Both the position numbers and the translations under genes were made by a program. This document shows, piece by piece, positions 27,564-28,346 of a DNA stretch of 64,000 nt; position 1 is the stretch's first letter, and every line of letters starts with the position of its first letter. The stretch is from Alphaproteobacteria bacterium (lineage in GTDB: Bacteria > Pseudomonadota > Alphaproteobacteria > UBA8366): the NCBI GenBank assembly GCA_021774335.1, contig JAJFJD010000019.1, positions 96,099 to 160,098 of the forward strand. Direction: 5' to 3'. The notes under the pieces were generated by a model, which saw only the letters and a program-made list of their open reading frames with translations, was not told the origin of the DNA and did no database searches.

Positions 27564-28346
27564 GTGTCCGCGGAAACGATCAGAGTTTTTTGGCGCCCTG
27601 GGTGAACAAGCTGCCTTCGTACGAAAGAGTTTCTTTCGTCTCAAAACATCGACCATGAGTCAGTAAACGTTGAAGGCAACGCGGCGGGCATGGACCTGCT
27701 GTCGAGCCTCGGCGCGACCTCCGTTCCCGTCGTCTCCAAGGGCGACGAATTCGTCTATGCCCAATCGCTGCGTGATGTCGCTGAATTCCTGGACATCGAT
27801 GCGTCGGTTGGACCCACGCTGTCCATGCCGGAACTGGTCGACAAGCTCGATTTGGTGCTGGCGACGGCGCAGCGGCTGTGGCGGCAACTGCCCGACGAGG
27901 CATTGGCCGAAAAACTGCCAAACCGCGACCGCAGTTACCGCGTCCTTGGACACCACATCTTCCGAATTCCGGAAGCCTTCCTCGAAGTGACCGAGGGGGC
28001 GACTCTCACTTATGACATGCTGACGACGGCGCCGCCGGACGCCATGACGACTGCCGAAGACATTGCCGCCTATGGCGACGATGTCCGGAAGCGGGTCAAA
28101 AAGTGGTGGCTGATGGTCGAGGATGTCACCGGTGAAGCGAAGGTGCCGACCTATTTTGGCGACCAGCCGATCCACGATGTGTTCGAGCGAACGGCCTGGC
28201 ATGCGGCCCAACACGTACGCCAGACCGCGATGATCCTTGAGCAACGGGGCATCACGCCGGATGCACCGCTGTCGGCGGATGACCTCGACGGCTTACCGGT
28301 TCCGGACAAGGTCTGGGACGACGAGCCGGACGCCGCTGCGACTTAG
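27564..28346 (+). CDS. Candidate selenoprotein: glutaredoxin-like domain with in-frame TGA at the first redox Cys, fused to a DinB-like domain
   Basis: AGGAGA RBS, GTG 27564. Translation VSAETIRVFWRPG[TGA]TSCLRTKEFLSSQNIDHESVNVEGNAAGMDLLSSLGATSVPVVSKGDEFVYAQ..., then ..HHIFRIPEAFL..ERTAWHAAQHVRQTAMIL. The only in-frame stop before 28344 is TGA 27603-27605. The ORF track starts downstream at 27690. Confidence 0.65.
27621..27639 (+). promoter_or_regulatory. Candidate bacterial SECIS hairpin
   Basis: ACGAAAG-AGTTT-CTTTCGT: perfect 7-bp stem, 5-nt loop with G at loop position 2, loop begins 22 nt after the TGA. Confidence 0.55.

What the first reader, a model, noticed from the sequence alone, without database searches (positions are those of the whole stretch)
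27564..28346. Candidate new selenoprotein: glutaredoxin-DinB fusion with UxxC motif
Seen directly: AGGAGA precedes GTG 27564, and the frame reads VSAETIRVFWRPG-[TGA 27603-27605]-TSCLRTKEFLSSQNIDHESVNVEG...SVPVVSKGDEFVYAQ..., continuing without another stop to 28344 through a DinB-like domain. Established knowledge: glutaredoxin-like domains carry CxxC after a W/Y-x-P-G-type turn, and Sec most often replaces the first Cys of such motifs. The TGA falls exactly there (UTSC), and the reading frame and protein-like sequence continue unchanged on both sides. Inference: this is Sec recoding, and the track's 27690 start is an artefact that removes the active site. The main alternative is a TGC-to-TGA nonsense change or sequencing error.
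Basis: partly seen in the sequence, partly recalled or inferred. Interest (0 to 1): 0.85.

Follow-up and report, generated by a model that had tools for sequence, protein, structure and literature searches.

The report
Selenocysteine glutaredoxin fused to DinB
A stop-like TGA in the middle of a bacterial gene almost certainly encodes the rare amino acid selenocysteine at the active site of a redox enzyme (a glutaredoxin joined to a DinB metal-binding domain), a selenoprotein type absent from the lists we could check and one that gene databases currently truncate.

Summary
Confirmed and strengthened. The frame 27564-28346 reads through one TGA (27603-27605) exactly where glutaredoxins carry the first Cys of CxxC.

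Evidence for selenocysteine:
- The genome has selA, selB, tRNA-Sec and selD; its selD itself has a TGA at the usual position.
- In 96 relatives the redox codon is TGA (45) or Cys (51), nothing else.
- Every full-length copy in the window's order is TGA. TGA copies track tRNA-Sec (20 of 24 against 5 of 75 genomes, p=1e-12) and selB (19 of 20 against 10 of 30 Cys genomes).
- SECIS hairpins appear only in TGA copies: a GUU-loop hairpin 23 nt after UGA in the window's lineage, a GUG-loop hairpin at 37 nt with compensatory changes in the others.
- The second Cys and the DinB His triad are invariant in 96 of 96.

The annotated start at 27690 is an artefact that removes the active site; public databases carry the same truncation. 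No glutaredoxin-DinB fusion is in a 2026 inventory of 119 prokaryotic selenoprotein families or in NCBIfam 20.0. Sec-glutaredoxins as such are known, so this is a new variant of a known kind. The reaction it catalyses is inferred only. Read-level and mass-spectrometry proof could not be run.

The parts
27553..27558 (+). AGGAGA, likely ribosome-binding site
   Evidence: read directly; five bases upstream of GTG 27564
27564..28346 (+). complete reading frame of the glutaredoxin-DinB selenoprotein (GTG start, one in-frame TGA, TAG stop)
   Evidence: full-length relatives align over the whole length
27582..27755 (+). glutaredoxin domain (residues 7-64)
   Evidence: Pfam PF00462, 37.3 bits, over cut-off; fold match to 3zit at 1.5 A rmsd
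27603..27605 (+). TGA decoded as selenocysteine 14, first residue of the UxxC motif
   Evidence: TGA or Cys codon in all relatives at this column; sel machinery present
27612..27614 (+). resolving Cys17 of UTSC
   Evidence: Cys in 96 of 96 relatives
27621..27639 (+). bacterial SECIS hairpin, type 1: ACGAAAGA-GUU-UCUUUCGU, loop starts 23 nt after the TGA with G then U
   Evidence: codons +7 to +11 identical in all 13 type-1 genes
27846..28223 (+). DinB domain (residues 95-220), predicted four-helix bundle
   Evidence: Pfam PF12867, 29.2 bits, over cut-off; fold match to 6iz2 DinB/YfiT, TM-score 0.83 by target
27954..27956 (+). His131, first ligand of the predicted DinB metal site
   Evidence: invariant in 96 of 96
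28200..28214 (+). His213-x-x-x-His217, second and third ligands of the predicted DinB metal site
   Evidence: both invariant in 96 of 96

Best explanation
The gene encodes a selenoprotein. The TGA at 27603 is read as selenocysteine by the genome's SelA/SelB/tRNA-Sec/SelD system, directed by a hairpin whose apical loop lies 23 nt downstream of the TGA. The product is a glutaredoxin/NrdH-like domain with a UTSC active site, fused to a DinB four-helix domain with an intact three-His metal site. Recoding is shown as far as sequence comparison can show it. Inferred: the selenolate attacks a disulfide or thiol adduct and Cys17 resolves it, while the DinB domain binds a metal and activates or presents a low-molecular-weight thiol (probably glutathione) or its electrophilic adduct, so that the protein works as a two-domain thiol transferase/reductase in redox defence. 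My confidence in that function is about 0.45. The confidence below is for selenocysteine recoding of this fusion protein.
For: Sel machinery: tRNA-Sec 75.7 bits with anticodon TCA, selB 453.7 bits and selA 598.4 bits adjacent on contig C4, selD 419 bits whose own TGA lies in GGGUGCK. Column identity: only TGA, TGC or TGT at the redox codon (52/34/17, duplicate records included; 45 Sec and 51 Cys after removing duplicates). Every full-length copy in the order is TGA. Co-distribution: tRNA-Sec in 20 of 24 TGA genomes against 5 of 75 others, p=1e-12; selB over cut-off in 19 of 20 TGA genomes against 10 of 30 Cys genomes (p=1e-5). SECIS: type 1 hairpin beats synonymous shuffles in 13 of 13 and codons +7 to +11 are 100% synonymously identical against a gene mean of 0.48. 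Type 2 hairpin has 97.5% of cells paired, 11 double-sided changes against 2.7 in shuffles, covariation 0.33 against at most 0.13 when slid, and loop GUG in 30 of 30; its pair 38-46 forms in only 1 of 51 Cys genes. Domains and residues. DinB-fold proteins with a three-His site include metal-dependent thiol transferases (PMC5815605, PMC10950700).
Against: No direct detection of Se or of the full-length protein. Whole-region folding energy does not separate TGA from Cys genes, and the window's 48-nt fold is -7.4 kcal/mol, marginally above the -7.5 limit of the published model. Four TGA-bearing genomes lack a detected tRNA-Sec (they are 77-93% complete), and one more lacks selB over the cut-off (its completeness is not given). 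For function: there is no conserved gene neighbourhood, and the best glutaredoxin-type matches are NrdH and YruB, not classical glutathione-dependent glutaredoxins.
Confidence: 0.95

Rival explanations
1. The TGA is a sequencing error or a recent nonsense mutation of a Cys codon, and the gene is a pseudogene or an assembly artefact.
For: A single base separates TGC from TGA; the window's genome is a draft of 63 contigs.
Against: The same TGA is in the sister species, in a second paralogue of the same genome and in dozens of other assemblies; no TAA or TAG at this column. The frame stays under purifying selection on both sides.
Confidence: 0.01
2. Translation starts at ATG 27690 and only a DinB protein is made; the upstream similarity is a fossil.
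For: Gene finders call it so: the best 25 database hits are truncated proteins of 207-242 aa.
Against: Codons before the TGA and between it and 27690 show few amino-acid changes. UxxC, the cis-Pro residue and other glutaredoxin residues are invariant. A start at 27690 would cut the glutaredoxin domain in two.
Confidence: 0.02
3. TGA is read as another amino acid (a code change or suppression) rather than as selenocysteine.
For: Read-through as such cannot tell which residue is inserted.
Against: Neighbouring window frames end in TGA, and so do some of these very genes (L013 and L017). Homologues have Cys only. Full Sec machinery and SECIS hairpins are present.
Confidence: 0.02
4. Functional rival: the protein is an NrdH-like disulfide reductase fed by thioredoxin reductase, and the DinB domain only binds metal or substrate; it does not transfer thiols.
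For: Best NCBIfam matches are NrdH 41.5 bits and YruB 39.6 bits, both under cut-off; nearest solved structures include several NrdH entries.
Against: The His triad that binds the metal in DinB-fold thiol transferases is invariant, and most of the bacteria concerned are expected to make glutathione (general knowledge, not tested).
Confidence: 0.4

Closest known systems
Selenocysteine-containing glutaredoxin (PF00462, UxxC; e.g. WP_010943784.1; listed as experimentally verified in PMC13188914)
   Same: glutaredoxin fold, Sec in the first position of UxxC
   Different: listed as a glutaredoxin (PF00462) with no DinB domain mentioned; the window's domain falls below the cut-offs of all named NCBIfam glutaredoxin models and is closest to NrdH/YruB
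UXX-star glutaredoxin-like selenoproteins (NF041212, NF041114, NF041211, NF047338)
   Same: glutaredoxin-like fold with Sec in a Uxx motif
   Different: scores 25.1 against a cut-off of 66 (NF041212); keeps the second Cys; fused to DinB
DinB/YfiT S-transferase-like superfamily (BstA, mycothiol transferase; PMC5815605, PMC10950700)
   Same: four-helix DinB fold and the three-His metal site
   Different: those are single DinB domains or DinB fused to other domains; none described with glutaredoxin or Sec in the papers found
Cys-containing glutaredoxin-DinB proteins of Burkholderiales and Rhodospirillales (database names 'glutaredoxin', 'DinB family protein')
   Same: same two-domain architecture, about 45-59% identical, CTSC or CSSC at the active site
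   Different: Cys codon, no SECIS hairpin signal

Membership tests
Bacterial selenoprotein | in-frame UGA inside a conserved coding frame | tested here: met
Bacterial selenoprotein | Cys at the UGA column in homologues (Sec/Cys pair) | tested here: met
   51 Cys and 45 Sec of 96, no other residue
Bacterial selenoprotein | UGA-containing homologues in other organisms | tested here: met
   22 of 44 genomes of the order and many other Alphaproteobacteria
Bacterial selenoprotein | SelA, SelB, tRNA-Sec and SelD in the genome | tested here: met
Bacterial selenoprotein | bSECIS: 3-9 nt loop with G in its first two positions, 4-16 bp stem, 16-37 nt from UGA (model in PMC13188914) | tested here: met
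   8 bp stem, loop GUU, 23 nt; type 2 in relatives: loop GUG, 37 nt, covariation
Bacterial selenoprotein | bSECIS minimum free energy at or below -7.5 kcal/mol | tested here: inconclusive
   window -7.4, sister species -8.4
Bacterial selenoprotein | selenium in the protein | not testable with these tools
   needs 75Se labelling or mass spectrometry
Glutaredoxin (PF00462) | score over the Pfam cut-off, redox motif and cis-Pro | tested here: met
   37.3 against 22.9 bits; UxxC/CxxC and Pro55 invariant
Glutaredoxin (PF00462) | glutathione-dependent activity | not testable with these tools
   nearest models are NrdH/YruB
DinB/S-transferase-like superfamily (PF12867) | four-helix fold and three-His metal site | tested here: met
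   29.2 against 24.8 bits; fold match; His131, His213, His217 invariant
UXX-star selenoproteins (NF041212) | score over the NCBIfam cut-off of 66 | tested here: not met
   25.1 bits

The most novel reading that the evidence does not exclude
A previously unlisted selenoprotein family: a Sec-glutaredoxin covalently coupled to a DinB metal-dependent thiol-transferase domain, forming a selenium-dependent thiol-transfer enzyme with an N-terminal Trx fold and a C-terminal helical domain, as in glutathione S-transferases but with an unrelated helical half. It kept Sec across many alphaproteobacterial families while its SECIS element took two unlike forms at different distances from the UGA.
Probability: 0.4. 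Interest if true: 0.75.

Novelty: new variant of a known kind. Interest (0 to 1): 0.66.

Why it matters
It appears to add a selenoprotein family to the 119 listed in 2026. It occurs in many uncultivated Alphaproteobacteria, where annotation now deletes the glutaredoxin active site and leaves 'DinB family protein'. It links selenium to the DinB thiol-transferase superfamily, whose natural substrates are mostly unknown, and the natural Sec and Cys versions of one enzyme allow a direct test of what Sec buys. Two distinct SECIS hairpins in one gene family also offer a natural experiment on how SECIS elements arise and move.

Tried and rejected
Whole-region folding energy against synonymous shuffles did not separate TGA from Cys genes; only the hairpin search with the loop rule and synonymous conservation did. 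An apparent pair 20-27 in the mixed TGA set was superseded by the two hairpins and is not claimed. Rfam finds nothing at the SECIS. Gene neighbourhood is not conserved in the Sec set; the one cluster seen only there comes from five loci, which I take to be one group of close relatives. The two SECIS types fall apart on the quick tree, but holding type 1 together gives a better likelihood (p-AU 0.78), so repeated origins of type 1 are not claimed. One even sample of 399 genomes of the phylum found the gene in only two, both TGA, so the family is not common across the phylum. Haft and Tolstoy 2025 (PMC12013261) is not in the library, so its families were checked only through the table in PMC13188914 that cites it.

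Full report
Observation. The frame is as described: GTG 27564, TGA 27603-27605, TAG 28344-28346, with AGGAGA at 27553-27558. The read-through product is a glutaredoxin domain (PF00462, residues 7-64) followed by a DinB domain (PF12867, residues 95-220), both over their Pfam cut-offs.

Sec machinery. The window's genome (5.4 Mb, 63 contigs) has selA and selB side by side and tRNA-Sec about 1.2 kb downstream on one contig, plus selD. That selD has its own in-frame TGA in GGGUGCK, so the organism carries at least one standard selenoprotein gene. A second copy of the glutaredoxin-DinB gene elsewhere in the same genome, 50% identical, has the same TGA.

Homologues. Among 99 relatives, every full-length match has TGA at this codon. 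In the order, 22 of 44 genomes have the gene, confined to two of its four families, and every full-length copy is TGA. The copy in G023 is broken in two frames, and the piece of it that covers the redox site has one TGA. A scan of GTDB species genomes gave 80 named loci: loci titled Alphaproteobacteria or Rhodospirillales are TGA or Cys, while Burkholderiales and other Betaproteobacteria are nearly all Cys. The redox codon is TGA 52, TGC 34, TGT 17 and nothing else; two further TGA copies outside the search motif (L099 UTRC, L118 TKPGUSSC) were added by eye. On a tree of 96 proteins the states need only four changes.

Co-distribution. True tRNA-Sec hits form a separate score group (67.8-79.8 bits, next best 53.9). 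Twenty of 24 TGA genomes have one against 5 of 75 others (p=1e-12). selB is over cut-off in 19 of 20 TGA genomes and 10 of 30 Cys genomes (p=1e-5).

SECIS. Two hairpin types fit the published bacterial model (quoted). Type 1, in the window and 13 other sequences, is CGAAAGA-GUU-UCUUUCG, 8 bp in the window with the next A-U pair, the loop 23 nt after UGA. Its codons +7 to +11 are identical in all 13 genes measured, although the gene averages 0.48 identity among codons for the same residue, and it beats synonymous shuffles in 13 of 13. Type 2, in 31 sequences, is UCGGUCC-GUG-GGAUCGA with the loop 37 nt after UGA and GUG in 30 of 30 measured. Pair 38-46 switches U-A to C-G and pair 34-50 switches U-A to A-U; 97.5% of cells pair, and covariation is 0.33 against at most 0.13 when slid. 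Cys genes show neither: median shuffle p 0.41, and pair 38-46 forms in 1 of 51. L118 and L099 were assigned to types 1 and 2 by eye.

Structure and active sites. The AlphaFold model is confident (pLDDT 92, pTM 0.88). Foldseek matches the N-terminal part to the thioredoxin-like protein BC3987 (3zit, TM-score 0.88 by target) and the C-terminal part to DinB/YfiT DR0053 (6iz2, 0.83). The second Cys, Pro55 and the His triad 131/213/217 are invariant in 96 of 96. In B. subtilis BstA three conserved His are proposed to bind the metal, and all eight B. subtilis DinB-fold bacillithiol transferases are metal-dependent (PMC5815605). How the two sites cooperate here is inference.

Literature. The 2026 inventory of 119 prokaryotic selenoprotein families (PMC13188914) lists Sec-glutaredoxins and UXX-star proteins but no DinB fusion. 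deep-Sep (PMC12013277) and the marine metagenome surveys (PMC2398784, PMC1088965) do not mention one, and the papers holding both 'selenocysteine' and 'DinB' are unrelated by title. NCBIfam 20.0 has no model for it. Some short marine reads filed as 'Grx-like' could belong here; that was not testable.

Verdict. Selenocysteine recoding is as secure as comparative genomics allows. The family is a new variant (a domain fusion) of a known kind. Its biochemical role is open.

Noticed in passing
L037 (own genome C60:19929-20675): Second Sec-type paralogue of the same fusion gene, 50% identical, with the same TGA and the same type-1 hairpin; the sister species has both copies too.
   Followed up: partly
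own genome C38:4650-5579 (L043): selD is itself a selenoprotein gene (GGGUGCK); a second selD-like match in an open frame of 763 aa without TGA lies at C62:27362-28279.
   Followed up: partly
27690-28346: Public protein sets carry this family mostly as truncated DinB proteins (25 best hits of 207-242 aa), so the misannotation is systematic.
   Followed up: partly
L118 and L057: TGA copies in contigs titled Betaproteobacteria, a group otherwise carrying Cys copies; could be horizontal transfer or mis-binned contigs.
   Followed up: no
L027 and L038 (G023): Two near-identical copies broken between two frames just after the redox site; frameshift or assembly error.
   Followed up: no
23153-23629 and 22737-23432, minus strand: Adjacent frames that read like a YeeE/YedE-type transporter pair (by eye only).
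   Followed up: no
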